The notes beneath the pieces were generated by a model. The model was not told the origin of the DNA. It saw only the letters and a program-made list of their open reading frames with translations, and searched no databases. Shown piece by piece: positions 15,336 to 51,188 of a stretch of DNA of 64,000 nt; positions within the stretch are counted from its first letter, which is position 1; the number at the start of each line of letters is the position of its first letter. The stretch is from a bacterium (lineage in GTDB: Bacteria > SZUA-79 > Acidulodesulfobacterales > Acidulodesulfobacteraceae): contig QIJE01000028.1 of the NCBI GenBank assembly GCA_003232385.1, positions 62,001 to 126,000 of the forward strand. The letters are read 5' to 3'. Position numbers and translations under genes: made by a program.

Positions 15336-18014
15336 ATGGTTAGATATGTTTATTTTTTCGGAGACAAGCATGCGGATGGCGACGGTTCTATGAAAAATCT
15401 TCTCGGCGGCAAGGGGACCGGTCTTGCGGAAATGACCAATCTCGGCATAAGGGTCCCCGCGGGATTTACTATTACTACCGATGTTTGTACGCATTATTAT
15501 GAACACGATAAAAAATATCCCGAACAATTAAAGGGAGAGGTGAAAAGTAATCTAAAGAAGATGGAAGAAGCCATGGGGGCAAGATTTGGAGATGAACGTA
15601 ACCCCCTGCTGGTTTCGGTAAGAAGCGGAGCCAGGGTTTCCATGCCCGGAATGATGGATACCGTTCTTAACTTAGGATTGAACGACAATACGGTTAAAGG
15701 GCTTATAAATAAATCCGGTGATGAAAGATTCGCCTATGATACGTATAGGCGATTTATTCAGATGTTTTCGAACGTGGTGCTTGGAATAGATTCAAGCGTT
15801 ATGGAATCTATTTTGGAGAAAAAGAAGGAAGAAAGATCGGTAAGAAACGATAATGAGTTGACCTATGGCGATTTCAAGAGCCTTGTTGATGAATTTAAGG
15901 ATGTAGTTAGAAAAAAAAGGGGGATCGAGTTTCCGAGTGACCCGGAGGAACAGCTATGGATGGGTATATCTGCCGTATTTGAATCATGGGACGTGCCGAG
16001 AGCCATAGTTTACAGAAGGCTTAACAAAATTCCGGAAAACTGGGGGACGGCGGTTAACGTAGTATCGATGGTTTACGGAAATATGGGTGATACTTCTGCA
16101 ACCGGGGTCGCTTTTACGAGAGACCCTTCAACCGGAGACAACGGTTTTTACGGAGAATATCTTATAAATGCTCAGGGTGAAGACGTAGTGGCCGGCATAA
16201 GAACCCCGCAGCCCGTGAATGAAATTTCCAGAAAAAATCCGGATGACATTTCACTTGAGCGTGTCATGCCTAACGTGTATAAGGACCTTTTAGAATATGC
16301 GGATACATTAGAAAAATATTATAAGGATATGCTCGATTTAGAGTTTACGATACAGGAGGGTATTCTCTATATGCTGCAGGTTCGTACCGGAAAAAGAACG
16401 GCTAAGGCCGCCGTAAAAATCGCGGTAGATATGGAAAAAGAGGGAATGATAGATAAAGAAACAGCCGTTTTGAGAATAGACCCTTATTCTATCGTGCAGC
16501 TCATGTATCCTGCCGTAGACATTAAGGCCGATAAGGATGTCGTGGCAAAGGGGCTTCCTGCGTCTCCGGGGGCGGCGAGCGGAGAAGTGGTTTTTTCCGC
16601 AGAAGAAGCGGAAGAAGAGACAAAGAAGGGCAAAAAGGTAATATTAGTAAGGATTGAAACATCGCCGGAAGATATTCACGGAATGAGCGTGGCGGAGGGG
16701 ATCCTCACAGCAAGAGGCGGAATGACCTCTCATGCTGCCGTAGTTGCCAGGGGTATGGGTAAGTGTGCGATAACCGGCTGTTCTTTCCTTGGAATAAACG
16801 AAAAAAACGGCGAGATAACGGTTGGAGACAGGATAATAAAAAGGGGCGATATATTGACCCTAAACGGTTCCAACGGCGAGGTTTACTCCGGTTACGTGAG
16901 CATGGTGACTCCGGAGATTAATGAAGATTTTAAGTCCATAATGAAATTTGCGAATGAGTTTAGAAAATTAAAGGTTAGAGCTAACGCCGATACCCCGGAA
17001 GACGCGAAAGTTGCTCGAAATTATGGGGCGGAAGGCATCGGGCTTTGTAGGACCGAACATATGTTTTTTAAGGGGGATAGAATAAAAGCGGTAAGAGAGA
17101 TGATACTCTCGGAGACGTTAGAAGAACGCCGTAAGGCCCTTGCTAAACTTTTGCCCATGCAAAAATCCGATTTTCTCAAACTATACGATGAAATGAAGGG
17201 TTATTCCGTCAATATACGTTTACTTGACCCACCCCTTCACGAATTTCTGCCTAAAACCGAAAAAGAAATAAGAGAGCTTTCGGATATCATGGACGTATCT
17301 TACGAAAGATTGAAAACCAAGGCGATATCGCTTCACGAAGTCAACCCGATGCTCGGACATAGAGGATGCAGACTCGGCGTAAGTTATCCTGAGATTTACG
17401 AGATGCAGGTTCGGGCAATTATGGAAGCGGCATGTGAATTTCACAATAGCGGCAAAAAAATAACATTGGAAATTATGATTCCCGTAGTAAGTATTTACGA
17501 AGAGATAAGGCTATTAAAGGAATTGGTTAATAAAAAGACTAAAGAGGTAATGAAGGAATATGGAGTGAAGTTTGAGTATCTCGTCGGAACTATGATTGAA
17601 CTGCCGAGGGCATGCATGATCGCAGACGAGATAGCAAAGGAAGCGGAATTTTTCTCGTTCGGAACAAATGATTTGACGCAGACAGCTTTTGGATTTTCAA
17701 GAGATGATATCGGCTCATTTTTGCCGGATTATCTGAATAAAAATATATTGAAAACCGACCCGTTTATAGAATTAGACAGAAGCGGAGTCGGAGAACTAAT
17801 GAAAATAGCCGTGAATAAAGGTACGAGTGTGAGGCGGGATATTAAACTTGGGATATGCGGAGAGCATGGCGGAGATCCCTCTTCTATAGAATTTTGCCAT
17901 AGTTTAAATCTTAACTATGTAAGTTGTTCTCCCTATATGGTTCCTATTGCGATTATTTCTGCCGCTCAGGCATCGCTTAAAGATTTAAGTAAAAGAACCG
18001 GCGGGAAACTTTGA
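15336..18014 (+). CDS. ppdK: Pyruvate, phosphate dikinase
   Basis: This three-domain enzyme of 892 residues interconverts pyruvate, ATP and Pi with PEP, AMP and PPi. The order is an N-terminal ATP-grasp domain (GGKGTGLAEMTNLG; SGARVSMPGMMDTVLNLGLN), the central swivelling phospho-His domain (GGMTSHAAVVARGMGKCAITG, His near residue 455) and a C-terminal TIM barrel with the pyruvate-site FGTNDLTQ and LGICGEHGGDPSS. The start is ATG 15336, since the in-frame TTG at 15324 lies within the TTGGAGG Shine-Dalgarno. Anaerobes often use it for PPi-dependent glycolysis or PEP formation. mfd follows 10 bases later. Confidence 0.96.
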   Translation: MVRYVYFFGDKHADGDGSMKNLLGGKGTGLAEMTNLGIRVPAGFTITTDVCTHYYEHDKKYPEQLKGEVKSNLKKMEEAMGARFGDERNPLLVSVRSGARVSMPGMMDTVLNLGLNDNTVKGLINKSGDERFAYDTYRRFIQMFSNVVLGIDSSVMESILEKKKEERSVRNDNELTYGDFKSLVDEFKDVVRKKRGIEFPSDPEEQLWMGISAVFESWDVPRAIVYRRLNKIPENWGTAVNVVSMVYGNMGDTSATGVAFTRDPSTGDNGFYGEYLINAQGEDVVAGIRTPQPVNEISRKNPDDISLERVMPNVYKDLLEYADTLEKYYKDMLDLEFTIQEGILYMLQVRTGKRTAKAAVKIAVDMEKEGMIDKETAVLRIDPYSIVQLMYPAVDIKADKDVVAKGLPASPGAASGEVVFSAEEAEEETKKGKKVILVRIETSPEDIHGMSVAEGILTARGGMTSHAAVVARGMGKCAITGCSFLGINEKNGEITVGDRIIKRGDILTLNGSNGEVYSGYVSMVTPEINEDFKSIMKFANEFRKLKVRANADTPEDAKVARNYGAEGIGLCRTEHMFFKGDRIKAVREMILSETLEERRKALAKLLPMQKSDFLKLYDEMKGYSVNIRLLDPPLHEFLPKTEKEIRELSDIMDVSYERLKTKAISLHEVNPMLGHRGCRLGVSYPEIYEMQVRAIMEAACEFHNSGKKITLEIMIPVVSIYEEIRLLKELVNKKTKEVMKEYGVKFEYLVGTMIELPRACMIADEIAKEAEFFSFGTNDLTQTAFGFSRDDIGSFLPDYLNKNILKTDPFIELDRSGVGELMKIAVNKGTSVRRDIKLGICGEHGGDPSSIEFCHSLNLNYVSCSPYMVPIAIISAAQASLKDLSKRTGGKL

Positions 18015-32543: not shown

Positions 32544-32806
32544 ATAATTAAAACCACTTTTAAAACAACTGCATTCTATCATAAATGAAATTATAATTCA
32601 AATATCTTTTGCTAATATGAATTTCTCTGTATTTACATATGCCAAATAGCTATATGTAAGTAAAGGGATCACGAAAAAAGTTCTTGATTTAAATAACCGT
32701 TTGTAATAACATAAGTCAAAGTAAGGTTATTGTCCCGGTTTTTAAAATTTGAAAAAATAATTTGGCGGGTTTTTTTTGCCTAAAAACAATAAAGGTTAAT
32801 AATATA

Positions 32807-33670
32807 TTGAAAAATATTACGTATTTTCCAGGTTGTGCAGGTTCTAAAAATAAAAGCTTAGGGGATGTATTTGAAAAATTAGGTTTAGAGGTTGAATTAA
32901 TTGCTAATTGGAATTGTTGCGGTGCGCCTCAGTCTCATAATAGGCCGAGTTTTTTCGATAAGGTAGTCATGCCGCTTAGAAACTTGGGTATTGCTCAGCA
33001 AAACGGCAGTGACTTTATATATTCCGGGTGTCAAGTTTGCGTCAAACAGATAAACGAAGCAGTTAAGACGATAAATCTGAATTCTATGCTTAGAAGTCAA
33101 GCAAAATACAGCCTCGAACCCTTTAACGCCAGTTTAAAAAATATCGAAAGTGATTCCGCCGGAGCTATTCACCTTATGGATATCATTACCGATCCCGATG
33201 TAACGGCAAATCTTTTAAATAATACCGTGAGGAACTTAAGCGGTCATTCGATATTGCTTTATACGGGTTGTTACCACGATAACCGTAAAACGGATGCCTT
33301 TAAAGAAATCCTAGAATCATTCGGTGCCAACGTCAATATATACAGGGAATGCTGCGGGGGAGAAAAATTGCAAAACACTACGCCGGTACATTCTAAAAGA
33401 GTTGAGAACGTTAGCGGGATTGATGCGTTTTTTAAAAAAATTAATCGTAAAGCCGATGAAATCAATTCCGATTACATAATAGCGATATGTTCTATGTGTG
33501 AAAAGAATATTGAAGACGGTGTGGAGTTATCCGATCTCGATGTTTTTGCCCCTGTAATCGGATTAACGGAATATATAGGTTTTTTGTTCGGTTTGCATAA
33601 TTTCGGCGATTTAATAAGCTTAGTAGTTAATAATGATGTAAATGACGAGAAACGGAAGCTTTGCGTATAA
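32807..33670 (+). CDS. HdrB-like protein with two CCG domains
   Basis: This protein of about 287 residues contains two cysteine-rich CCG domains: YFPGCAG, NWNCCGAPQ and SGCQVC in the first, and TGCYHD, ECCGGE and CSMCEKN in the second. In heterodisulfide reductase HdrB such domains bind unusual non-cubane [4Fe-4S] clusters that act on disulfides. The frame opens at a TTG (32762), but TTG at 32807 with AAAGG upstream places YFPGC near the N-terminus as in the family. It lies 24 bases before the molybdopterin catalytic subunit, so it may pass electrons between that enzyme and a thiol/disulfide or quinone pool. The actual partner is unknown. Confidence 0.8.
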   Translation: MKNITYFPGCAGSKNKSLGDVFEKLGLEVELIANWNCCGAPQSHNRPSFFDKVVMPLRNLGIAQQNGSDFIYSGCQVCVKQINEAVKTINLNSMLRSQAKYSLEPFNASLKNIESDSAGAIHLMDIITDPDVTANLLNNTVRNLSGHSILLYTGCYHDNRKTDAFKEILESFGANVNIYRECCGGEKLQNTTPVHSKRVENVSGIDAFFKKINRKADEINSDYIIAICSMCEKNIEDGVELSDLDVFAPVIGLTEYIGFLFGLHNFGDLISLVVNNDVNDEKRKLCV

Positions 33671-33694
33671 ATCTATAATGAAATGGAGGTAAAC

Positions 33695-36238
33695 ATGAAT
33701 CTAGAGGAGTTAAAAAATGAGAAATTTTTGCGGGTAAGAGACAATAGGCTGATAAAAATAAAGCCTGATCATCGTCCGCAAGAATCATCGAAGGATTACG
33801 ATACCGTTCGTTATTCTACTTGTACTAATATGTGTGAGAGCGGTTGCGGTCTTAAAATATTCTTAAAAGACGGCAAGATTGTAGATGTGATGGGTGATGC
33901 GGAACATCCCCAAAGCAGAGGTGGTCTTTGCTCTAAGGGTGTCGGGCAAATTCAATGGTGGTATGACCCGCTTAGAGTTCATCATCCAGTGATTAGAAAA
34001 TCGTTAACCGATGATTTCAAGAGGGTCTCGTGGGATGATGCACTTGATTTTGCTGCTGAAAAATTAATTAAATTATCTAAAGAATATGGACCGGAAGCCC
34101 TTACGGTTTTTAGAACCGGAAGGTCGTCATTCGGAAATAAAGAGGGAGGGGCGAGATTTGCAAAAATATTCGGCACTCCTAATGTTTACGGTCAAGGGCC
34201 TATCTGCTGTGAAAGCCCCGGTGTGGCGATGAACTATGTTTTCGGCGCAAAAGGCTTAGGCAGGCTTATGAACCCGTCTCAAGATTGGAAAAATTCAAAA
34301 TGTATTCTTGTCGTAGGCACAAACATGGCAGCGCAGGAAACGATTACTATGACTCATATTTTGGATGCCAGAGATAACGGAGCATTTTTAATAGGAGTTG
34401 ATCCGCGCTTTAATGCAACACTGTCAAAATGCGATATCGGAATGAGAATTCGTTCCGGTTCCGATGCTATTTTATTTCTCGCAATGGGTAACATTATTAT
34501 TAAAGAGAAGCTTTACGATAAGGAATTTGTTGACAAATGGGTTTCCGGATTTGGAGAATACGCTAAAGAATGTGCTAACTGGTCTCCTGAAAGAGCCGAA
34601 AAACTTACCTATGTCCCTAAAGGAATGATTATTGAAGCGGCAAAAAGGTTCGGTGCGGCAAGACCTGCATCTGTCATGGGTAATTTGGGTACTGCTCAGA
34701 TTTATAACTCCAACAACGTAAATAGAGCTATTGCGGCCCTTCTTGCTTTGACCGGTTCCATAGGTGTTAAAGGCGGTGGTTGGAATTGGCTTCATAATTG
34801 TCGTCCCCCGTTAAATTACGGTAGCGATTTAAAGGTTTTGTCCGGCTCTAAAAGACCGCAGATAACGGATAAATTAATATCTTGGGGAGACAGTTCGGTT
34901 CCCGCCATAATCAATGCAATGATATATGAGAAACCGTATCCGGTTAAGGGTATTATTTGGAACGGAGATCATTTGCCGCAGTTTCCGAATTCTTGGAAAA
35001 TGGAAGAGGCGATGAAGAAGAATGTAATAAATATCCATCTTTCTATATATCCTAATCATACCTATATGTTTAGTCACGTTGCATTTCCGATAGCTATTTC
35101 TGCAGAAACCGACAGTATTTGTCATCACGGCAACAATAGGCTTATTCAGTGGCATAATAAGGTCATACCATATCAGCATGAACATAGAGCGGATATTGAC
35201 GTGTTTGACGGTTTAGCAAAAAGGCTTAAAGGGCAGATAGGGCATTTTGACGAGGTAGAGTTTAATCCCTGGGGATATTATAAAGATGGTCCCGATAAGG
35301 GAAGGGTCGACGAAATCAAAATGACCGACTTTTTTAATACTCAAGAGCCGGTTACGAGAGGCATCACTTATGATCTATTAAACCCCGAAAAAAATCCGAA
35401 AGGTGGAATTATGTGGCCGGTTTTTTCAAAAGAAGAGGCTGTATTCCAAGATGATGAAGCAGTATTGAGGGGCAAATGGATAATGTATAAAGAGGGCGAA
35501 AATTATCCCGAAACGGATAAAAGGTTCCCTACTCCGTCCGGAAAAATAGAGATCACATCGGATGCATTAGAAAAGATAGGCTGGTATAAGGTTCCTACGC
35601 AGGTTGAAGGTTCGGAGTCGCCGCTTGGAAATTTTGAAAGAGCGGAGAAGTATCCGTTAGTCTTAAATACTACTCGTATCGCCCAATCATTTCATGAAGG
35701 CGGACATTGGTGGCCGTGGAACGATGAGCTTGAGCCGGATAGGAATATCGAAATAAATCCGGAGACTGCAGCGATTATGGGAGTAGAAGACGGAGACATG
35801 GTTATCGTAGAAAATGATAGGGGATGGGTAGAGGGTCCGGCATGGGTTACGGAAATGGTTCCTGAAGACGGTATATGGTCAAACTTCGGCTTTGATAGGT
35901 ACCAACCGTTTCATCCGTATGAGTCTATCAACACCGTTATAGATGATATAATAAAAGACCCTGTTTATGGACAGATACAGTTTAAGGCGGTTCTTTGCAG
36001 TGTTTACAGAAAGGGCGATCCTGACCCAAAAGCTACGACAAAGAAGGTGCTGGAATTTCTTAAGAAGAAATTTCCTGAGGTTTGGGATCCTGCAAAACAG
36101 GATAAAGATATCATTGTCGGAAAATGGAAAGACCATTGGAAAGAATATCATGAACTCAGCATAGGATGGAAAAAGCTCGTGAACTTTAAAGAACCGGTGG
36201 AATGCACACCCGATTCTTGTGACATTCGCGAATATTAA
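33695..36238 (+). CDS. DMSO-reductase-family molybdopterin oxidoreductase catalytic subunit
   Basis: This protein of 847 residues has an N-terminal [4Fe-4S] site (Cys43, Cys47, Cys51, Cys79), bis-MGD binding domains, and a C-terminal cap (residues about 640-790, with HEGGHWWPWNDELEPDRN). Cys171-Cys172 in GPICCESPG lie where family members place the Mo/W ligand, so a Cys-ligated metal is likely, as in polysulfide, thiosulfate and arsenate enzymes. There is no Tat signal, so it should be cytoplasmic. The ATG at 33695 follows TGGAGG; the earlier ATG at 33683 overlaps that site. The substrate cannot be named. Sulfur-compound or formate-like chemistry fits the neighbours. Confidence 0.85.
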   Translation: MNLEELKNEKFLRVRDNRLIKIKPDHRPQESSKDYDTVRYSTCTNMCESGCGLKIFLKDGKIVDVMGDAEHPQSRGGLCSKGVGQIQWWYDPLRVHHPVIRKSLTDDFKRVSWDDALDFAAEKLIKLSKEYGPEALTVFRTGRSSFGNKEGGARFAKIFGTPNVYGQGPICCESPGVAMNYVFGAKGLGRLMNPSQDWKNSKCILVVGTNMAAQETITMTHILDARDNGAFLIGVDPRFNATLSKCDIGMRIRSGSDAILFLAMGNIIIKEKLYDKEFVDKWVSGFGEYAKECANWSPERAEKLTYVPKGMIIEAAKRFGAARPASVMGNLGTAQIYNSNNVNRAIAALLALTGSIGVKGGGWNWLHNCRPPLNYGSDLKVLSGSKRPQITDKLISWGDSSVPAIINAMIYEKPYPVKGIIWNGDHLPQFPNSWKMEEAMKKNVINIHLSIYPNHTYMFSHVAFPIAISAETDSICHHGNNRLIQWHNKVIPYQHEHRADIDVFDGLAKRLKGQIGHFDEVEFNPWGYYKDGPDKGRVDEIKMTDFFNTQEPVTRGITYDLLNPEKNPKGGIMWPVFSKEEAVFQDDEAVLRGKWIMYKEGENYPETDKRFPTPSGKIEITSDALEKIGWYKVPTQVEGSESPLGNFERAEKYPLVLNTTRIAQSFHEGGHWWPWNDELEPDRNIEINPETAAIMGVEDGDMVIVENDRGWVEGPAWVTEMVPEDGIWSNFGFDRYQPFHPYESINTVIDDIIKDPVYGQIQFKAVLCSVYRKGDPDPKATTKKVLEFLKKKFPEVWDPAKQDKDIIVGKWKDHWKEYHELSIGWKKLVNFKEPVECTPDSCDIREY

Positions 36239-36342: not shown

Positions 36343-36996
36343 ATGTCGTATGAATATGGATTTGATAGATTTCATCTTGGGGAGGAAAGGGCTTCCAGAG
36401 TTACTCTAAAATCATCCACTCCAAAATATTCGATGAAAGTAAACATGGATAGATGCATAGGCTGTATGTCGTGCGAGGTTTCATGCAAGAAGGAGCATAA
36501 TCTTCCGGTCGGACCTCGTAGAATGAGAGTAATACAGGTAGGTCCTTATTTTGTAAAAAAAGGGCAGTTAAGGACGGTTTATCTTCCCATGAATTGTTTT
36601 CATTGCGATGATGCCGCGTGCGTAAAGGCTTGTCCTACCGGTTCTATGCAAAAGCGGTCCGACGGTGTAGTTTTTAACGATCCCAATACGTGTATCGGCT
36701 GTAAATCTTGCATACAGGCTTGTCCTTTCGGTTCTCCGCAGTTTAACGATGCAACCGGAAAGGTAACTAAATGTGATTATTGCAGGCACAGGATAGATAA
36801 AGGGCTTTTACCGGCTTGTGTTACTTTATGCCCTACCGATGCCTTGTGGTTTGGAAATATAAACAGAATATCGACGGTTGATAGAGAGAAAACGGCGAGA
36901 AAATTGACTGAGCATCTTTTCGGATTCGTTACTCCTCCTTCCGGCATGGGTACTTCTTCTGTTAATGATACCGATAATCCGGTTAAAGTAGGTTAA
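36343..36996 (+). CDS. Four-cluster ferredoxin subunit (DmsB/PsrB/NrfC type)
   Basis: This protein of 217 residues carries four [4Fe-4S] binding sets typical of the electron-transfer subunit of DMSO-reductase-family enzymes: CIGCMSCEVSC near residue 38, CFHCDDAACVKACP, CIGCKSCIQACP and CDYC..CVTLCP. It should wire the preceding Mo/W subunit to its redox partner. No NrfD/PsrC membrane anchor follows, and neither subunit has a Tat signal, so a soluble complex, perhaps with the HdrB-like protein, is implied. The ATG follows a good AGGAG site. Confidence 0.93.
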   Translation: MSYEYGFDRFHLGEERASRVTLKSSTPKYSMKVNMDRCIGCMSCEVSCKKEHNLPVGPRRMRVIQVGPYFVKKGQLRTVYLPMNCFHCDDAACVKACPTGSMQKRSDGVVFNDPNTCIGCKSCIQACPFGSPQFNDATGKVTKCDYCRHRIDKGLLPACVTLCPTDALWFGNINRISTVDREKTARKLTEHLFGFVTPPSGMGTSSVNDTDNPVKVG

Positions 36997-37088: not shown

Positions 37089-37334
37089 ATGGCAGACATA
37101 GGGGTAATAGGAACTATTTATAATGCTCCAATCAGAGTCGAATATATAAACGGAGATTTTGATAAAGCTGAAGCAATTTTAAAAAAAGTCGATATTCATA
37201 TTTTAGGAAGAAACGTAGCGAGTGTAACGCCTTATCATGCTACTATATTTGTCGGCTTAAAGGATGAAGAAAAATCATTAGTTTTAATTAAAAAAGCAGG
37301 CATTAAAACATACCCGATAGAGCCTTATTTTTAA
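37089..37334 (+). CDS. Small orphan protein in the molybdoenzyme operon
   Basis: This soluble protein of 81 residues is not one I recognise. It shows alternating strands and helices (VIGTIYNAPIRVEYING, a helix about residues 28-38, ATIFVGL, a helix, TYPIEPYF), a pattern compatible with a small alpha/beta fold. There are no Cys residues, so it does not bind Fe-S. The start is ATG 37089 because TGGAGGT lies nine bases upstream; an ATG at 37074 overlaps that site. A terminator follows, so it is the last gene of the HdrB-Mo-FeS operon and may be an accessory or chaperone of that enzyme. Confidence 0.7.
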   Translation: MADIGVIGTIYNAPIRVEYINGDFDKAEAILKKVDIHILGRNVASVTPYHATIFVGLKDEEKSLVLIKKAGIKTYPIEPYF

Positions 37335-37418: not shown

Positions 37419-38708
37419 ATGAACGATAAAACGGCAAAAAAATTATTTGAGATCGCAGAAAAAAATATTAAAAAGGTAAGCGGAGTTGAAAATATACCCG
37501 TCGAAGACGGTTTAGGCAGGGTTATATCTAAAGATATTGTTCCGAATAATAATGTTCCTCCCTTCACAAGGTCTGCAGTTGACGGTTTTGCCTTAATGTA
37601 TTCCGATTTTTCCGACAAGAAACTGAAAATATTTAAGGTCAAAGATCAAATTACCGCCGGCTATTCTAAGGAATTGATGCCGTTAAATTCAGGGGAGGCA
37701 GCATTTGTTACGACCGGAGCCCCTGTTCCTCCCAATGCCGACAGTGTCGTGTTGATAGAAGACGCAAAAGAATATTCTAACGGATTTATGACATATGAAA
37801 AAGAAGTAGAAAAAGGTTCCTACATATCGCCTGTAGGCGATGATATCGCGGCCGGGGAGATATTATTTAAAAAAGGTCATAGAATAAGATTTTGTGATAT
37901 CGCGGCGTTATCGGGTATAGGCTTAGGCCGTGTGCCTGTTTATAAAAAACCGGTAGTTGGAATATTGTCCGGAGGAAATGAGTTGGTTTCACCGGGGGAA
38001 AGCCTCGGCAGAAATGAAATTTACAATATAAATACGACGGCGCTTAAATCTCTCGTTAAAGATGCAGGAGGTATTCCGGAGGTTATAGGCGTAGTAGAGG
38101 ATAAATTAGAAAAATTGGTCGAGATTTTTAAAACTGCCGATAACTCTCAAAAATACGACTTAATAATTTCAACCGGTGGGACCGGTGCCAGTTTTTTGGT
38201 CTTAGAAAATAAAGAGATTACTAATTTTTATGATTTAGTCCCCTCTGCCGTAGAGAAAACCGGTAAATTGTTGTTTCACGGAGTTAGATTAGTGCCTGGA
38301 AAACCGACTTCTTTTGGGGTTTTAGACAAAGGGACTCCCATATTTGCCCTTGCCGGATGGCCGTATTCCGTTCTAATAACATTTGATCTTTTTGTAAGGC
38401 CGTATATTCAGAAATCGATGAACACCGAAAACGCATATAAGAGATATCCGACCGTCAAGGCGACTCTTAAAAAAGACATTTTTAAAGAAGAAGGCGTTAG
38501 AAAATATTTTCAAGTAAAGTTGACTAAAGAGAAAAATGGTAACTTGCTTGCTTCCGTGATGCCGGCTCCCAAGCCTCCTTCCGCAGCAAGGTCTTTAAGT
38601 CCCATGATAAATGCGGACGGCAGTTTCGTTGCAAAAGAGTCTTCTACGTTTATTAAGGCCGGTAGCACTATAGATGTCGTGTTAAGCGATTATGAGATTG
38701 ACGATTAA
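37419..38708 (+). CDS. moeA: MoeA-like molybdopterin molybdenumtransferase, divergent
   Basis: This protein of 429 residues has MoeA domain order: domain I with NNVPPFTRSAVDGFAL (the substrate Asp), domain II with TTGAPVPPNADSVVLIED, the MogA-like domain III (about residues 180-330) and a C-terminal beta domain. It inserts Mo or W into adenylylated molybdopterin. Domain III reads STGGTGASFLV where most MoeA have GGxSxGxxD, so that Asp is lost, and AGWPYS replaces PGNPVS. The fold otherwise looks intact. It may be tungsten-preferring or a functionally shifted paralogue. moaA overlaps its end. Confidence 0.88.
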   Translation: MNDKTAKKLFEIAEKNIKKVSGVENIPVEDGLGRVISKDIVPNNNVPPFTRSAVDGFALMYSDFSDKKLKIFKVKDQITAGYSKELMPLNSGEAAFVTTGAPVPPNADSVVLIEDAKEYSNGFMTYEKEVEKGSYISPVGDDIAAGEILFKKGHRIRFCDIAALSGIGLGRVPVYKKPVVGILSGGNELVSPGESLGRNEIYNINTTALKSLVKDAGGIPEVIGVVEDKLEKLVEIFKTADNSQKYDLIISTGGTGASFLVLENKEITNFYDLVPSAVEKTGKLLFHGVRLVPGKPTSFGVLDKGTPIFALAGWPYSVLITFDLFVRPYIQKSMNTENAYKRYPTVKATLKKDIFKEEGVRKYFQVKLTKEKNGNLLASVMPAPKPPSAARSLSPMINADGSFVAKESSTFIKAGSTIDVVLSDYEIDD

Positions 38709-39558
38709 AAATATGAAACAATATTTATTTAAAGCATTTGACGATATAGGGGATGAATATAGGCGAAATAGATTTGAATTTAAAGTTCCGTCTTTAAGGG
38801 TATCTCTGACGGGTGATTGCAACGAAAATTGTTTTTATTGTCACAACGAAGGAATTTCTAAGGGGTCGTCGTCGATTATTACTACCGGAGATATCATAAA
38901 CACAATATATGCATTGAGGGGATACGGTCTTAAAAAGATAAAATTTACCGGCGGAGAGCCGCTTTTATTTGCAGATTTAAAAAATCTTTTATATAAAATT
39001 AAACATATTTCGGACATAAGCATATTTATTACTACAAACGGGACGCTGATAAAAAAAAGAATAAAGGATTTGAGCCCTAACATAATAAAAAAAATATCGG
39101 TAAGTCTTGACACACTTGATGCTGGAGTTTATAAATTTATAACCGGAAAGAATATGCTCGAGGAGGTTTTAGCGGGTATTAATACATTAAAAAAAGGCGG
39201 TTATAGCGTAGAAATAGATAATCTTTTACTAAAGGGTTTAAATACTAATAAAAAATGCTTGAAAAGGATAATAGACTATTGTACGGGAAATGGATTTGAT
39301 TTGCAATTTATTGAGTTGTCGGATAAAATATCCGCCCCTTATTATCTAAAATATCATGCCGATCCCATAAGAATATTACAAAAAGCCGGTTTAAATTTTG
39401 ATCCGGAAAGGTCTAATGATAGACAATTTTTCAAGGTAAACGGAGTTAAGGTGACCGTTTGCAGAAGTATAAAGGATTTGGACAAATCTTCAAACGGAAG
39501 ATGCGGCGGCTTGAGGCTGCTCCCGGACGGTTTCTTAAAAGATTTTTTTTATGAATAA
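38692..39558 (+). CDS. moaA: MoaA-like radical SAM protein with degenerate C-terminal cluster
   Basis: This radical SAM protein of 288 residues has the CNENCFYCHNEG SAM-cluster motif near residue 43 and FTGGEPLL. MoaA converts GTP to 3',8-cyclo-GTP in molybdopterin synthesis. The C-terminal end reads GRCGGLRLLPDGFLKDFFYE, where MoaA has CxxCNRLRLTxDGKLKPCL. Only one of three cluster-ligand Cys remains, and the terminal GG tail is absent, making it about 40 residues short. It may be a MoaA paralogue with altered chemistry. Start at 38692 overlaps moeA by 17 bases; ATG 38713 is an alternative. Confidence 0.8.
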   Translation: MRLTIKNMKQYLFKAFDDIGDEYRRNRFEFKVPSLRVSLTGDCNENCFYCHNEGISKGSSSIITTGDIINTIYALRGYGLKKIKFTGGEPLLFADLKNLLYKIKHISDISIFITTNGTLIKKRIKDLSPNIIKKISVSLDTLDAGVYKFITGKNMLEEVLAGINTLKKGGYSVEIDNLLLKGLNTNKKCLKRIIDYCTGNGFDLQFIELSDKISAPYYLKYHADPIRILQKAGLNFDPERSNDRQFFKVNGVKVTVCRSIKDLDKSSNGRCGGLRLLPDGFLKDFFYE

Positions 39559-39594
39559 CAATGAAAACAATAAATTACGGGAAAGGTTAATACT

Positions 39595-40083
39595 ATGATC
39601 GTGGAGTTAATAGGGAAAGAAGCGGGTTTAACATTTGAATGCATACATGTAGTCCCCGGTAGGGGAGATTGTTCTAGAATGCATCCACATTTTCATTACG
39701 TAAACGTACTGGTTGACGGCGAGTTTGACGACAAAAGAAGAATAGTTCATCTATATAATTTAAAGGCGATAATAAAAAGAATATGTTATACGTTCGAGGA
39801 TAAAATATTAGTCGCCGATTATCCCGAAATAATTCAACGAATTGCCGTTGAAGACTCACACTACCGGATAGAGATAAATAATAAGTCTTATTTTATTCCC
39901 GAAGCCGATGTTTTTAAAATAAAAATTCCTTCCCTTAATATAGAAGACTTGACGGTTTATTTTGCGGACGAACTTGCAAAAGATTTAAAAAATAGTGAAA
40001 TGTCGAACACTTTAAATTATTTTGAAGTCGTTTTGAGCGAAGGCCACGGACAGAGAGGTAAAATTAGGATTGATTTGAAATAA
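39595..40083 (+). CDS. 6-pyruvoyl-tetrahydropterin synthase/QueD-like protein
   Basis: This protein of 162 residues matches the pterin-synthase T-fold: a first Zn-ligand His in ECIHVVPG, then the catalytic Cys and two more ligands in GDCSRMHPHFHY (compare KCxxLHGH in QueD), the RIVHLYNLKAIIKRI helix in the position of VDFGDLK, FEDKILVADYP (compare LDHKLLN), and a late Glu-His stretch LSEGHGQRG. Family members turn 7,8-dihydroneopterin triphosphate into pterin products. Its place between moaA and mobA suggests a role in a pterin cofactor path, rather than in queuosine. AAAGG precedes the ATG. Confidence 0.75.
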   Translation: MIVELIGKEAGLTFECIHVVPGRGDCSRMHPHFHYVNVLVDGEFDDKRRIVHLYNLKAIIKRICYTFEDKILVADYPEIIQRIAVEDSHYRIEINNKSYFIPEADVFKIKIPSLNIEDLTVYFADELAKDLKNSEMSNTLNYFEVVLSEGHGQRGKIRIDLK

Positions 40084-40092
40084 AACATAGAT

Positions 40093-41073
40093 ATGATAAG
40101 TAGTATTATACTTGCCGGTGGCGAGTCGAAAAGATTCGGTGAAGATAAGGCTTTTTTTAAGTTTGACGGTGCATCGTTTTTAGAAAGAGTTTTACGTGTC
40201 GCTGCGGAAGTGAGCGACGATATAGCCGTCTGTGTAAGGGAAGAAAGTAAAGTAAAAGATTATGATAGGGAAATAAAGAGGATTACGGGGAACGGCTTAA
40301 GCAGAAACGATAAAGATTTGGTTGTTAGAATAATTCCGGATGATAAAAATTGTGGCATTAAGGGTCCTATGAGGGGTATTTATAGCTCTGTAGGGTGTTT
40401 AAGCGGAGAATCAATTTTAGTCATGGAGTGCGATGCTCCTTTTTTCAATGCGGATGCGGCAAAAGAACTGATAAAAACAATAAAATCGGAAAATGTTAAG
40501 GCTGTTGTCCCATTACAGCCGGATTCTACAGTGGAGCCTCTCCTTGCATGCTATAAAAGAAAAGACACACTTTGCCTGCTTGATATGTTGAATAATTATG
40601 CTTTGAACCTCGGGGATGATTTTTTGTTCAACGATTCCGTTAACATTTTAAGGTTTTTGTCATCTGTTTATTATTACAATATTTTAGATATGGTTAAATC
40701 TAATAAAAAATTAAAACCTGATATATTTATAAACATGAACAGCAAAAAAGAATTGGAAACATACATGTCCAATAAAAGAATACCGTGCAGGGGCATTGCA
40801 AAAAGCGTTAAAATTAAAAAGACTAATAGATTTTTCGATTTGACAAGCCCTAAGGGCACACCTTACGGAATATTAGCAAAAGCACTATATTACTGGTGGG
40901 TCTATGCCAAAACTAAAAATGATATATACGCCATAAAGTCATTTGAGTATTTTAAAAAAGACGGCTCAATGTATTTTAATAACGGATTAGATTTTATGGG
41001 TGGTAAAATCTTAAAATTATTGCCTGGTCGGTTCAATATCTTAATGCAAACAAAAAAAGAGGTTTTTTTATGA
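40093..41073 (+). CDS. mobA: MobA-like molybdenum cofactor guanylyltransferase with C-terminal extension
   Basis: This protein of 326 residues has a nucleotidyltransferase domain (about 1-225): LAGGESKRFGEDKA at the N-terminus, KGPMRGI, and VMECDAPF (compare ACDMPF), with VEPLLACYKR. MobA attaches GMP to Mo-molybdopterin to form the bis-MGD needed by the upstream catalytic subunit. About 100 further residues (KRIPCRGIAKSVKI to the end) have no counterpart in ordinary MobA and are unrecognised. The stop overlaps the ferredoxin start (ATGA), so translation is coupled. Confidence 0.83.
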   Translation: MISSIILAGGESKRFGEDKAFFKFDGASFLERVLRVAAEVSDDIAVCVREESKVKDYDREIKRITGNGLSRNDKDLVVRIIPDDKNCGIKGPMRGIYSSVGCLSGESILVMECDAPFFNADAAKELIKTIKSENVKAVVPLQPDSTVEPLLACYKRKDTLCLLDMLNNYALNLGDDFLFNDSVNILRFLSSVYYYNILDMVKSNKKLKPDIFINMNSKKELETYMSNKRIPCRGIAKSVKIKKTNRFFDLTSPKGTPYGILAKALYYWWVYAKTKNDIYAIKSFEYFKKDGSMYFNNGLDFMGGKILKLLPGRFNILMQTKKEVFL

Positions 41074-41354
41074 ATAAAAATAAGCTTACAAATTTGAATG
41101 AAGATCTAAAGAAAAACCGGACGGAAATAATGCTGTATCCTTCTAAATGCGATGGTTGCGAGGGTGAAGGATTTATGGCGTGTGTTAAGGCGTGCGAAAC
41201 GCACATGAATAAAAAATACGGCTCTAAATATACGGGAGCGCGTATTAATATAAAGAAAAAAGCGGGTAAATTTTTTCCGATAATATGTCATAACTGCGAA
41301 GAGCTTGCATGCCCGGTGCAAGATATAAAGACTTGGAATCCGGCTGGACTATAA
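41070..41354 (+). CDS. Multi-cluster ferredoxin, N-terminal part before a frameshift
   Basis: This reading frame of 94 codons contains CDGCEGEGFMACVKAC and CHNCEELACP, the first half of a four-[4Fe-4S] electron-transfer protein like those of aldehyde oxidoreductase and DMSO-reductase systems. The second motif should read C-x2-C-x4-C-x3-CP, but only C-x2-C-x4-CP is present, and the frame then departs (QDIKTWNPAGL, stop). About four residues and a few bases appear to be lost near 41320-41335, a spot flanked by CTTGCA and TGCAAG. The downstream part continues in another frame. Confidence 0.75.
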   Translation: MNKNKLTNLNEDLKKNRTEIMLYPSKCDGCEGEGFMACVKACETHMNKKYGSKYTGARINIKKKAGKFFPIICHNCEELACPVQDIKTWNPAGL

Positions 41355-41608
41355 CCAACTATAAGAAATGTGTCGGATGCTGGATGTGTATAACGTCTTG
41401 TCCGTTTGGAGCAATTGAAAGAGTGAGCGACGGTCATTTTGCATCTAAGTGCGACGGGTGCGTGGGAGAAGACGTGCCAAAGTGTGTAGAGGCATGTAAG
41501 AAAGGGGCTTTAAAAAAGATGGGTATCAAAAATTATTCATATGAAAGAAGGCTTATGGTAGCAAAAAAAATTTACGGACCGTATATAAAATCCAATACAA
41601 AAGAATAA
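41309..41608 (+). CDS. Multi-cluster ferredoxin, C-terminal part in the shifted frame
   Basis: This frame supplies the other half: GARYKDLESG continues the ferredoxin pattern, followed by CVGCWMCITSCPFGAI and CDGCVGEDVPKCVEACKKGAL, two more Fe-S sets. The nominal ATG at 41309 lies inside the conserved motif of the first part and has no ribosome site, so it is not an independent gene. If the protein is intact in the living cell, it has about 185 residues and passes electrons to or from the FAD protein that starts 17 bases downstream. Confidence 0.75.
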   Translation: MPGARYKDLESGWTITNYKKCVGCWMCITSCPFGAIERVSDGHFASKCDGCVGEDVPKCVEACKKGALKKMGIKNYSYERRLMVAKKIYGPYIKSNTKE

Positions 41609-41624
41609 AAAAGGGGATTAGATT

Positions 41625-42950
41625 ATGAGATATGTTATTATTGGGAATTCATATGCAGGTTTGTCCTGCGCCGAGGCTATAAGAAGATTTGATAAAACCG
41701 GAGAAGTTATTATTATGTCCGATGAAAAACATAGAGCATATGCGAGGCCTCTCATATCATATTATTTAGAGGGCAAGGCAACTGATGAGACCATTTGTTA
41801 TAAGGATGAAGATTATTACGAAAAGAATAATTTTACGCTGATGATTGGAAAAAAAGCGGTTTCCATTAATACCGTTGCCAAAAAAGTAATCGTTGAGGGC
41901 AGTGACGATTTAGATTACGATAAACTTTTCATAGGTCCGGGCGGAACTCCTTTTATACCGCCGATTGACGGGTTTAACCCCGACTCCCCTATGATGGGAA
42001 CATTTACGAAATTCGACGATGCTAAAAAGATGGAAAAAGCGGCTAAAGATGTTAAGCGCAAAGAAGCTATAGTGATAGGCGGCGGATTGATAGGCTTAAA
42101 GGCGTCGGAGGGGTTAAGAGCGCTGGGTCTTCACGTTACGATAGTAGAGTTGCTGCCACGCGTTTTGGGTCTGGCATTAGACGAGGTGTCCGGAAATATC
42201 ACGGCGAAAAGATTAAATAAAAACGGTATAGATACGGCAACCGGCGAAACCGTTACGAAAATTAATTTAGACGAATCGGGTAACCCGACGAGCGTAGTAT
42301 TGAAAAGCGGTAAAGAATTGTCGGCAGATATTGTAGTAGTCGGCGTAGGTGTAAGACCTAATATCGGATTTCTTGAGGGTAGCGGAATAAAAATAGATAG
42401 GGGTATTATCGTAGATAAGACAATGATGACAAGCGTCAAGGACGTTTATGCGGGCGGAGACGCTACCGTTATTTACGATGTAATAAATAAACGCCCGAAT
42501 ATTATCGCTATTGTTCCGCTTGCATGCGAGGAAGGCAGAGTGGCAGGCACGAATATGGCGGGCGTTTATAGGGAATATCCCGGCGGAATGGGATTGAATT
42601 CAGTCGAGATATACGGGTTGCCTATAGTAACTATAGGGTTAACTAACCCGGCCAACGAATCGCAGAAGGTATATATCTTTCAGGATGATAATATTTACAG
42701 AAAATTTGTTTACGACGGGGAAGTTCTCGTAGGGGCTATTTTGCTTGGGGATATTGCCGGAAGCGGAATATTGTCCGCAATTATTAGACAGGGCTTGAAA
42801 TGTCTTGAATATAAAGATGAATTTTTGAACGGAAATATATACTCGTTTGTTATAGATAGTGAGTTTGAGATATACAATATCAACAAAGGGTATGCCGTAA
42901 AGAGTTATCCTGAGGATTTACCGGAGTTTTCAAGGACAAATTGGAGATAA
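41625..42950 (+). CDS. FAD/NAD(P)-dependent disulfide-type oxidoreductase
   Basis: This flavoprotein of 441 residues has two Rossmann sites: GNSYAGLSCAEAIRR at the N-terminus for FAD, VIGGGLIGLKASEGLRALGLHVTIVE near residue 148 for NAD(P)H, and the second FAD segment DVYAGGDATV near residue 277. There is no CxxxxC redox pair, so it is the rubredoxin/ferredoxin reductase or NADH-oxidase kind. Placed behind a four-cluster ferredoxin it resembles the FAD subunit of aldehyde oxidoreductases (AorC), but no tungsten catalytic subunit lies beside it. It likely couples ferredoxin and NAD(P)H. Confidence 0.85.
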   Translation: MRYVIIGNSYAGLSCAEAIRRFDKTGEVIIMSDEKHRAYARPLISYYLEGKATDETICYKDEDYYEKNNFTLMIGKKAVSINTVAKKVIVEGSDDLDYDKLFIGPGGTPFIPPIDGFNPDSPMMGTFTKFDDAKKMEKAAKDVKRKEAIVIGGGLIGLKASEGLRALGLHVTIVELLPRVLGLALDEVSGNITAKRLNKNGIDTATGETVTKINLDESGNPTSVVLKSGKELSADIVVVGVGVRPNIGFLEGSGIKIDRGIIVDKTMMTSVKDVYAGGDATVIYDVINKRPNIIAIVPLACEEGRVAGTNMAGVYREYPGGMGLNSVEIYGLPIVTIGLTNPANESQKVYIFQDDNIYRKFVYDGEVLVGAILLGDIAGSGILSAIIRQGLKCLEYKDEFLNGNIYSFVIDSEFEIYNINKGYAVKSYPEDLPEFSRTNWR

Positions 42951-42956
42951 AATCGT

Positions 42957-43190
42957 ATGGATTTTAATAGTTATTACGGCGGAAACGAAGCTGAATTGAA
43001 AATAATTATTGAACAATTGTTGCTTGAGGCAAGGAATGTCGACGAGGAAAATTTCGGCAAATGGTACGAAAAGAAGAGAAGAGTTTTCAATATAGGCGTT
43101 AAAAAAGCCCCTACTAAAGAAGAATTTATAAAATATCTTAATTGCGCGCTAAGTTTGCATTTAAGCGGTAATAAGCCGTATTTTAGTTAG
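42957..43190 (+). CDS. Small conserved-looking orphan protein
   Basis: This protein of 77 residues starts six bases after the FAD oxidoreductase. It is mostly helical (EAELKIIIEQLLLEARN; EEFIKYLNCALSLHLSG), charged, with one Cys and no membrane segment. I do not recognise it. The tight spacing on both sides suggests it is co-translated with the oxidoreductase and mobB, perhaps as a small subunit or assembly helper. Confidence 0.6.
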   Translation: MDFNSYYGGNEAELKIIIEQLLLEARNVDEENFGKWYEKKRRVFNIGVKKAPTKEEFIKYLNCALSLHLSGNKPYFS

Positions 43191-43224
43191 CGTTTAAGCG
43201 TTAAGGAAATAAAGGCGGTTTAAT

Positions 43225-43779
43225 ATGTCGAAAGATATTAAAGACGTAAACGGTATCGTAGAAAAAACGCCTAAGGTAGTTTCATTTGTCGCTAAATCGG
43301 GTACCGGAAAAACCACTCTTATAGAAAAAATAATAAAAATATTATCGGAAAAGGGTTATAGAGTCTCGTCTATTAAGCATACTGATCATGACTTCAATGC
43401 GGATATACCGGGGAAGGATTCATGGAGGCATAAAAACGCAGGGGCATATTCGACTATGATTCTTTCCGGTAGTAAAATGGCTTTTTTCAGCGATATTGAT
43501 TCCTCGCTTAAAATTATTAATATGATTCCGAAATATTTTAGGGGTTCCGATATAGTTATAATTGAAGGATTCAAGGATATTGATATAAAAAAAATAGAAT
43601 TGTTCAGGAAAGAATTAAATCCGGATTTAAAACTGCGATTCGGTAACGACTCTAATCTGCTGCTTATCTGCAGTGATGAGTTTATAGACGATATAAAAAC
43701 CCCCCAGATTAATATAAACAATGCTCAAGAAATAGCCGATTACATAGAATGCAATATTATTTCTCAGGTAGATTCTTAA
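43225..43779 (+). CDS. mobB: Molybdopterin-guanine dinucleotide biosynthesis adapter MobB
   Basis: This P-loop GTPase of 184 residues has Walker A AKSGTGKTTLIEKI near residue 20, the SIKHTDHDFNADIPGKDSWRHKNAGA segment typical of MobB, and VIIEGFKD as Walker B region. MobB binds GTP and assists MobA in attaching GMP. It is the last gene of the cofactor run. A 232-base gap with a possible new promoter follows. Confidence 0.92.
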   Translation: MSKDIKDVNGIVEKTPKVVSFVAKSGTGKTTLIEKIIKILSEKGYRVSSIKHTDHDFNADIPGKDSWRHKNAGAYSTMILSGSKMAFFSDIDSSLKIINMIPKYFRGSDIVIIEGFKDIDIKKIELFRKELNPDLKLRFGNDSNLLLICSDEFIDDIKTPQININNAQEIADYIECNIISQVDS

Positions 43780-50690: not shown

Positions 50691-51188
50691 TTAATCTCTC
50701 TTTTCTCTCCTGTACAATCCACTTTTTCCGCCCTCTTTTTTAATAAGATAAACTTCAGATATTTCAATGGATTTATCTACAGCCTTTAACATATCGTAAA
50801 TGGTCAATGCGGCGATGGACGACGCAACTAAACTCTCCATTTCAACCCCGGTTTTGCCGGATATTTTGACTATTGATTCTATGTCTATCGTGTTTTCTTT
50901 TTCATTCGGCTCGAATATAATATTACAGTCTTCAATGTTTAACGGATGGCATAAGGGGATTAAGCCGGAAGTCCTCTTTGCCGCCATGATGCCTGCAATT
51001 TTAGCCGTACCGAATACATCCCCCTTTTTACCGCCCGTACTTACGGCAAGACCGAATGCTATACTCGACATTGATACCTTTGCGTGAGCGGTTGCAATTC
51101 TGACCGTTTCCATTTTTTTTGAAACATCTACCATTTTCGGCATGCCTTTTTCGTCGATGTGGGTTAATTCCCCTCCTTCTTTTTTCAT
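50691..51188 (-). CDS. moaC: Cyclic pyranopterin monophosphate synthase
   Basis: This protein of 165 residues turns 3',8-cyclo-GTP, the MoaA product, into cyclic pyranopterin monophosphate. Signatures: LTHIDEKGMPKMVDVSKKMET at the N-terminus, GIMAAKRTSGLIPLCHPL, TGVEMESLVASSIAALTIYDMLKAVDK, and the KSGLYRRE end. An AAGGAGG site precedes the ATG. It lies about 7 kb from the other cofactor genes and looks fully normal, unlike moaA and moeA of this window. Confidence 0.96.
   Translation of the reverse strand: MKKEGGELTHIDEKGMPKMVDVSKKMETVRIATAHAKVSMSSIAFGLAVSTGGKKGDVFGTAKIAGIMAAKRTSGLIPLCHPLNIEDCNIIFEPNEKENTIDIESIVKISGKTGVEMESLVASSIAALTIYDMLKAVDKSIEISEVYLIKKEGGKSGLYRREKRD

What the first reader, a model, noticed from the sequence alone, without database searches (positions are those of the whole stretch)
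37419..43779. Atypical cofactor cluster: possible variant Mo/W-pterin pathway
In one run lie a MoeA without GGxSxGxxD, a MoaA without its C-terminal cluster, a pterin-synthase-like protein, an extended MobA, MobB and a ferredoxin/FAD electron pair. Each alone could be divergence. Together, next to a new type of molybdoenzyme operon, they suggest a modified pterin cofactor or metal-insertion route, possibly tungsten. This is the strongest candidate for an undescribed system here.
Basis: inference. Interest (0 to 1): 0.6.

Follow-up and report, generated by a model that had tools for sequence, protein, structure and literature searches.

The report
Extended molybdenum-cofactor operon in acidophiles
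A lineage of acid-mine bacteria carries two extra pterin-type enzymes of unknown function inside its molybdenum-cofactor operon; they travel with the cofactor genes rather than with the neighbouring molybdenum enzyme, so they may tailor the cofactor in a way not yet described.

Summary
The genes are real and unusually well conserved, but the reading needs correcting. The window is from an Acidulodesulfobacterales genome. The order moeA2–rSAM(MoaA-like)–PTPS-like–mobA…mobB is kept in all 26 genomes whose contigs cover it. MoeA2 has an invariant 11-residue insertion in place of GGxSxGxxD (the Asp is kept). The MoaA-like protein lacks two of three cluster-II cysteines and the GG tail. The PTPS-like protein has an invariant CxxxHPH motif outside the published signatures. 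These are additions, not replacements: the genome also has a canonical MoaA, MoaC and a second MoeA. The link to the adjacent HdrB–Mo enzyme fails in both directions. Genome G033 lost the enzyme module (MopB absent genome-wide) but keeps moeA2–rSAM–PTPS–mobA–mobB intact beside an ordinary formate dehydrogenase. G312 has a 53%-identical enzyme without the rSAM or PTPS. Tungsten is weakly supported: MoeA2 looks archaeal, but there is no AOR, and both published tungsten-selectivity residues are of the molybdenum type. Best reading: a lineage-specific Moco maturation operon with two recruited enzymes that probably tailor the pterin. Whether the final cofactor is chemically new is untested.

The parts
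32762..33670 (+). HdrB-like CCG-domain protein (enzyme module)
   Evidence: Pfam CCG 49.6 bits; syntenic in relatives; absent at the G033 locus
33683..36238 (+). Cytoplasmic molybdopterin (MopB-type) oxidoreductase, 851 aa (enzyme module)
   Evidence: Pfam Molybdopterin, Molydop_binding and Molybdop_Fe4S4; 87-92% identical across the family, 53% in G312, absent from G033
36343..36996 (+). NrfC/DmsB-like 4Fe-4S ferredoxin subunit (enzyme module)
   Evidence: homologue next to MopB in G312
37089..37334 (+). 81-aa conserved small protein (enzyme module), no Pfam family
   Evidence: conserved in relatives; homologue directly after Fd1 in G312; no Pfam match
37419..38708 (+). MoeA2, divergent metal insertase with an 11-aa insertion in the GGxSxGxxD loop (cofactor module)
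38713..39558 (+). MoaA-like radical SAM protein, truncated, 2 of 3 cluster-II Cys absent (cofactor module)
   Evidence: next best profile match in 386 genomes is 1e-41 against 1e-132 or better inside the family
39595..40083 (+). PTPS-like T-fold protein with CxxxHPH motif (cofactor module)
40093..41073 (+). MobA with C-terminal extension (cofactor module)
   Evidence: NTP_transf_3 87.9 bits over residues 5-157 only; 317-540 aa in relatives
41070..41608 (+). Multi-cluster ferredoxin, frame broken by a 16-bp deletion near 41302/41303 in this assembly (enzyme module)
   Evidence: intact 182-193 aa in relatives; DNA alignment
41625..42950 (+). FAD/NAD(P)H oxidoreductase, PadH/NirB-like (enzyme module)
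   Evidence: Pyr_redox_2 194 bits; best NCBIfam hit PadH 281 bits, below cut-off
42957..43190 (+). 77-aa conserved small protein (enzyme module), no Pfam family
   Evidence: absent at the G033 locus
43225..43779 (+). MobB (cofactor module)
   Evidence: TIGR00176 133 bits against cut-off 76; PF03205
50691..51188 (-). Canonical MoaC, showing that ordinary cPMP synthesis is present
   Evidence: PF01967 hit at G000:C1:112727-113134; TIGR00581 178 bits against cut-off 141.5

Best explanation
The locus is two interleaved modules. One is a cytoplasmic Mo-enzyme complex (HdrB-like, MopB, Fd1, 81-aa, Fd2, FAD, 77-aa). The other is the lineage's own late Moco-maturation operon: moeA2, MoaA-like rSAM, PTPS-like, extended mobA, mobB. 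cPMP is made by the ordinary MoaA and MoaC encoded elsewhere in the genome (genes shown; activity inferred). The cofactor module then inserts metal (MoeA2, helped by MobB) and adds GMP (MobA). The rSAM and PTPS-like proteins are additional enzymes recruited into this operon. Most likely (inferred) they work as a pair on a pterin-type intermediate or product of the pathway. The rSAM keeps the SAM cluster but not the cluster MoaA uses to hold GTP, so it should not be a GTP 3',8-cyclase. The PTPS-like protein keeps its zinc histidines, the catalytic-position Cys and the pterin-anchoring Glu of the T-fold family, so it should bind a pterin. The module serves the organism's Mo/W enzymes in general, not only the adjacent HdrB-Mo enzyme.
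For: The rSAM and PTPS-like genes co-occur in 27 of 27 family genomes that have either, and in no other of 386 genomes at comparable score. Order is conserved in every covered locus. In G033 the order mobB-mobA-PTPS-rSAM-moeA2 has gaps of about 13-46 bp, and HdrB, MopB, Fd1, s81, Fd2, FAD and s76 are all gone from the locus. MopB is absent genome-wide there, while FdhA scores 806 bits against a 666-bit cut-off. G312 has MopB-Fd1-s81 but only a canonical MoaA and no PTPS-like protein. Canonical MoaA, MoaC and a second MoeA are present. G002, which lacks MoaA, MoeA and MoaC, also lacks the module. Catalytic-type residues are invariant in 23 sequences each.
Against: No substrate, product or cofactor has been measured, and operon membership alone does not prove that rSAM and PTPS act on Moco. 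The G033 evidence is one genome (99% complete but 6% contaminated). Its PTPS-like protein is slightly less similar to the outgroup (66% against 68-74% for the others), which could mean relaxed constraint. I could not check the genome for other QueD or folate PTPS genes.
Confidence: 0.5

Rival explanations
1. Dedicated cofactor for the adjacent enzyme: MoeA2, rSAM, PTPS-like, MobA and MobB make a special cofactor used only by the HdrB-MopB enzyme.
For: Adjacency in all but one covered locus; MopB is the most strongly conserved protein of the locus (87-92%), with lower dN than ribosomal L13 and S9; G008 has the operon MopB as its only Molybdopterin-family hit.
Against: G033 keeps the five cofactor genes intact after losing the whole enzyme module. 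G312 has the enzyme (53% identical, same neighbouring Fd and small protein) without the rSAM or PTPS-like genes.
Confidence: 0.12
2. Tungsten branch: MoeA2 with MobB is a tungstate-selective insertase, like MoeA1-MobB of Methylorubrum extorquens, and the extra enzymes support a W cofactor.
For: MoeA2 scores 298 bits with the archaeal MoeA-PBP model PRK14498 against 231 for the E. coli type. It groups with Pyrococcus MoeAs (98/96), closest to 1uz5 (88/83). Archaeal MoeA1 is proposed to be the W paralogue (PMC11733289). In M. extorquens moeA1, mobB and fdhD are essential for the W branch (PMC13197769). G312, which has the homologous enzyme, carries a WtpA gene near moaA-mobA.
Against: No AOR (PF01314) in 14 genomes. 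The W-determining Arg291 and Ala312 of M. extorquens MoeA1 correspond to Lys and Ser in MoeA2 (PGKP, WPYS). A W branch explains neither the rSAM nor the PTPS-like protein. Long branches make the tree join uncertain.
Confidence: 0.18
3. Bystander pair: rSAM and PTPS-like make an unrelated pterin or deazapurine (as QueD and QueE do for queuosine, or PTPS-III for folate) and merely share the operon.
For: PTPS and radical SAM pairs are known in queuosine synthesis (own knowledge); the PTPS-like protein's closest solved relatives are Plasmodium folate-type PTPS.
Against: It lacks the PTPS-III Glu (ExxHGH) and the HGH of the three published signatures available. The NCBIfam QueD score is 26.8 bits against an 89-bit cut-off. 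The rSAM is closest to MoaA, not QueE. The pair stays between moeA2 and mobA even after the rearrangement in G033, and is absent along with Moco genes in G002.
Confidence: 0.17
4. Plain divergence or decay: ordinary Moco paralogues drifting in an isolated lineage, with no new function.
For: rSAM (53-71% identity) and MobA (31-65%) evolve fairly fast.
Against: pN 0.08-0.29 against pS 0.63-0.81 for MoeA2, rSAM and PTPS-like; roughly 70-80 invariant columns in each of rSAM and PTPS-like; the MoeA2 loop insertion is near-identical across genera; canonical copies are kept alongside.
Confidence: 0.03

Closest known systems
MoaA (GTP 3',8-cyclase)
   Same: Best sequence and fold match; CxxxCxxC, TGGEP and the LRxS and R268-position arginines kept
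   Different: 171 bits against a 231-bit cut-off; two of three cluster-II Cys, the R266-position Arg, ~45 C-terminal residues and the GG tail are missing
MoeA, archaeal MoeA1-like (PRK14498; Pyrococcus 1uz5)
   Same: All three MoeA Pfam regions; loop Asp and PGKP kept; nearest profile and nearest tree neighbour
   Different: No PBP domain; 11-aa insertion GGTGASFLVL.NKEITNFYD; LAGWPYS instead of LPGNPVS; below every full-length NCBIfam cut-off
COG0720 / PTPS family (PTPS-I QueD, PTPS-II, PTPS-III)
   Same: T-fold; TM 0.84 to Plasmodium PTPS; Zn-type His triad, C at -4 and Glu retained
   Different: CxxxHPH instead of CxxxHGH, ExxHGH or CxxxxxHGH (motifs from PMC5041015); the catalytic Asp-His region reads EDK; 46 bits against a 125-bit cut-off
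Tungsten-specific MoeA1-MobB-MobA-FdhD pathway of Methylorubrum extorquens (PMC13197769)
   Same: A second MoeA in one operon with MobA and MobB, alongside another MoeA in the genome
   Different: W-selectivity residues not present; extra rSAM and PTPS-like enzymes; no tungstate transporter seen among the neighbouring genes annotated here
PadH / AorC-type NADH-acceptor subunit with ferredoxin
   Same: FAD protein next to a ferredoxin, best NCBIfam hit PadH
   Different: No AOR catalytic subunit in these genomes; here it goes with MopB and is lost with it in G033

Membership tests
GTP 3',8-cyclase MoaA | N-terminal CxxxCxxC radical-SAM cluster and TGGEP | tested here: met
   Invariant in 23 sequences
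GTP 3',8-cyclase MoaA | C-terminal three-Cys cluster II and GG tail | tested here: not met
   One of three Cys aligned (and that one lost in L094); tail absent
GTP 3',8-cyclase MoaA | Score above a curated MoaA cut-off | tested here: not met
   138, 169 and 171 bits against 284, 325 and 231; the genome's other MoaA scores 376 bits and passes TIGR02666
MoeA molybdotransferase | MoeA_N, MoCF_biosynth and MoeA_C domains | tested here: met
   all above Pfam cut-offs
MoeA molybdotransferase | GGxSxGxxD loop | tested here: not met
   Replaced by an 11-aa longer near-invariant loop; only the Asp is kept
Tungsten-selective MoeA (M. extorquens MoeA1 type) | Arg at the PG[K/R]P position and Ala at the PxS position | tested here: not met
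   Lys and Ser in all aligned MoeA2 (residues)
PTPS / COG0720 | T-fold | tested here: met
   Foldseek TM 0.84, E 3.5e-13 to 3lze
PTPS / COG0720 | Signature CxxxHGH (I), CxxxxxHGH (II) or ExxHGH (III) | tested here: not met
   C-S-R-[IM]-H-P-H in all 23; motifs of PTPS-IV to VI were not available to test
Tungsten AOR system | AOR catalytic subunit (PF01314) in the genome | tested here: not met
   0 of 14 genomes, with controls ringing in 5
bis-MGD (MobA/MobB) pathway | MobA-like NTP transferase domain and MobB P-loop protein | tested here: met
   PF12804 and PF03205; enzymatic activity not testable here

The most novel reading that the evidence does not exclude
The lineage finishes its Mo (or W) cofactor with an extra chemical step: the MoaA-like radical SAM enzyme and the PTPS-like enzyme change the pyranopterin (or the attached nucleotide), giving a pterin cofactor not previously described, inserted and capped by a matching MoeA2 and extended MobA and used by all Mo enzymes of the group.
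Probability: 0.28. Interest if true: 0.85.

Novelty: new variant of a known kind. Interest (0 to 1): 0.5.

Why it matters
The organic part of the Mo/W cofactor is treated as essentially fixed after MPT, apart from the nucleotide and the metal ligands. A conserved operon that adds a radical SAM enzyme and a T-fold pterin enzyme between the metal insertase and the guanylyltransferase is a concrete, testable candidate for pterin tailoring. The natural contrasts, G033 (module without the neighbouring enzyme) and G312 (enzyme without the module), tell experimenters to look at all Mo enzymes of the lineage and not just the adjacent one.

Tried and rejected
Replacement of canonical MoaA/MoeA: rejected, canonical MoaA and MoaC and a second MoeA are present. 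AOR/tungsten enzyme: no PF01314. PTPS-like as folate (III) or queuosine (I) enzyme: motif and cut-off mismatch. An alternative auxiliary cluster in the rSAM from C190/C250/C264: C264 is Arg in L094, and the model is low-confidence from about residue 250 onward, so not supported. Outside homologues of the PTPS-like protein: genome-contig scan gave only this lineage (narrow patterns); 5 weak hits in the 386-genome sample, of which four are ordinary HGH-type PTPS and the fifth gave no ORF match in the window comparison; plasmids and viral contigs none. Plasmid search for MopB: the best rows are at most 27% identical. A Moco/W riboswitch near the operon: none in Rfam (the RcsR1 match is far below its threshold).
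Full report
What is there. The window is contig C1:62001-126000 of a 1.54-Mb, 95% complete genome. Its nearest named relative in the hits is Candidatus Acididesulfobacter diazotrophicus, which belongs, from my own knowledge, to the Acidulodesulfobacterales described by Tan et al. (PMC6776010). That paper's text does not mention molybdopterin.

Conservation. The same order HdrB–MopB–Fd1–s81–moeA2–rSAM–PTPS–mobA–Fd2–FAD–s76–(P-ATPase)–mobB/dus is found wherever contigs cover it (G033 excepted, see below), in 11 fetched family genomes and 22 loci from another collection. These overlap and represent 26 distinct genomes including the window's own, by my count of contig lengths; the relative order of mobB and dus varies. 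Synonymous sites are near saturation (pS 0.56-0.83), while pN is 0.045-0.067 for MopB, 0.084-0.154 for PTPS-like, 0.14-0.25 for MoeA2 and 0.17-0.29 for rSAM. These genes are therefore under purifying selection.

The proteins. MoeA2: the metal/pterin loop reads GGTGASFLVL[ED]NKEITNFYD in nearly all copies, 11 residues longer than GGVSVGEAD, and LPGNPVS is LAGWPYS. It scores best with the archaeal MoeA-PBP model (298 bits against 231 for the E. coli type) and branches with Pyrococcus MoeAs (98/96), although long branches weaken the finer placement beside 1uz5 (88/83). rSAM: MoaA-like core with intact radical-SAM motifs. In an alignment with the family's own canonical MoaAs, the FCxxCNRLR…LCL cluster-II pattern is reduced to RCxGLRLLPxGxLKxF, and the protein ends where MoaA goes on for ~45 residues to its GG tail. 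It scores 171 bits against a 231-bit cut-off, while the genome's other MoaA scores 376 against 284. PTPS-like: high-confidence T-fold (pLDDT 90), closest to Plasmodium PTPS (TM 0.84). The H18, C26, H30, H32 and E149 positions are invariant in 23 sequences, but HGH is HPH. Published signatures of PTPS-I, II and III all contain HGH (PMC5041015). That these residues bind zinc and pterin is inferred by family analogy.

Not a replacement. The genome has a canonical MoaA (C3, about 116574-117446), a second MoeA (C11) and MoaC, the last inside this window at 50691-51188 minus. Among the first 21 genomes searched, the 12 family members with the PTPS-like gene all have a canonical MoaA, and G002, which lacks MoaA, MoeA and MoaC, lacks the module.

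Double dissociation from the neighbouring enzyme. In a 386-genome sample, the PTPS-like and rSAM genes are found together in the same 27 of 30 family genomes and nowhere else at comparable score: rSAM 1e-132 or better against at best about 1e-41 outside, PTPS 1e-89 or better against at best about 1e-17 outside. Two genomes had PTPS but no MopB. One (G029) is simply cut at the contig end. The other (G033) is informative: on one 114-kb contig the order is mobB–mobA–PTPS–rSAM–moeA2 with gaps of about 13-46 bp, directly beside an atpE copy, and all seven enzyme-module genes are gone from the locus. MopB is absent genome-wide by two searches. G033 has a formate dehydrogenase above the equivalog cut-off (806 against 666 bits). 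A tetrathionate-reductase-like MopB protein is also there, but its orthologue exists in Moco-less G002 (79% identical), so it may not need Moco. Conversely G312, from an unrelated family, has MopB (53%), Fd1 and the 81-aa homologue, only a canonical MoaA (374 bits, above cut-off) beside an ordinary 191-aa MobA and near a WtpA gene, and no PTPS-like gene at E 1e-8. The rSAM and PTPS genes therefore segregate with moeA2, mobA and mobB, not with the enzyme.

Mechanism. Shown: gene content, order, motif changes, constraint, co-occurrence and the two dissociations. Inferred: the five genes form one late Moco-maturation unit; ordinary cPMP is made by MoaA/MoaC; MoeA2 and MobB insert metal; MobA caps. 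Inferred with less certainty: rSAM and PTPS-like act in sequence on a pterin of this pathway. The loss of cluster II, which in MoaA holds GTP (established knowledge of MoaA), argues that the rSAM substrate is not GTP in the MoaA manner.

Tungsten. For: archaeal affinity of MoeA2, since archaeal MoeA1 is proposed as the W paralogue (PMC11733289); the precedent of a MoeA1–MobB W branch (PMC13197769); WtpA in G312. Against: no AOR; Lys and Ser where the W-selective MoeA has Arg and Ala; nothing in a W branch needs rSAM or PTPS. Verdict: possible, not favoured.

Literature. A full-text search for Moco terms with '6-pyruvoyl' returned only one listed paper with that term, an unrelated clostridial omics study; I found no description of a PTPS-like protein in a Moco operon in the held library. 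Only open-licence papers are held, so absence is weak evidence.

Limits. Nearly all genomes are MAGs; the genome-wide scan for PTPS-like relatives used narrow patterns; other lineages were sampled, not exhausted; no biochemistry exists. The G033 contrast rests on one genome.

Noticed in passing
window 41302/41303: 16-bp deletion that breaks the frame of the Fd2 ferredoxin gene in this assembly; all relatives compared have it intact and the downstream frame is still conserved. Recent mutation or assembly error.
   Followed up: partly
window 37089-37334; L123:3269-3499: 81-aa protein of no known Pfam family that sits after the MopB ferredoxin also in the unrelated genome G312; candidate small subunit or assembly factor of the HdrB-Mo enzyme.
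   Followed up: partly
window 42957-43190: Second conserved small protein (77 aa, WYEKKR core) without Pfam match, lost with the enzyme module in G033.
   Followed up: partly
window 33683-36238: MopB is 87-92% identical across the family, with lower dN than ribosomal proteins L13 and S9, suggesting a central metabolic role; its substrate is unknown (Cys at the ligand position followed by Glu, not the His of formate dehydrogenases).
   Followed up: partly
L138:829-3942 (genome G002): A tetrathionate-reductase-like MopB protein is kept at 79% identity in a 99%-complete family member that lacks MoaA, MoeA and MoaC, so it may work without Moco.
   Followed up: partly
L126:8644-9036 and 15417-15809 (genome G033): Two near-identical atpE copies flank an ATP synthase operon at the site where the Mo-enzyme module is missing.
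   Followed up: no
L058:8784-10403 and other loci of the same genus (g2): MobA of one genus reaches 462-540 aa, with the NTP-transferase domain split into two stretches in L058, so the extension differs between genera.
   Followed up: no
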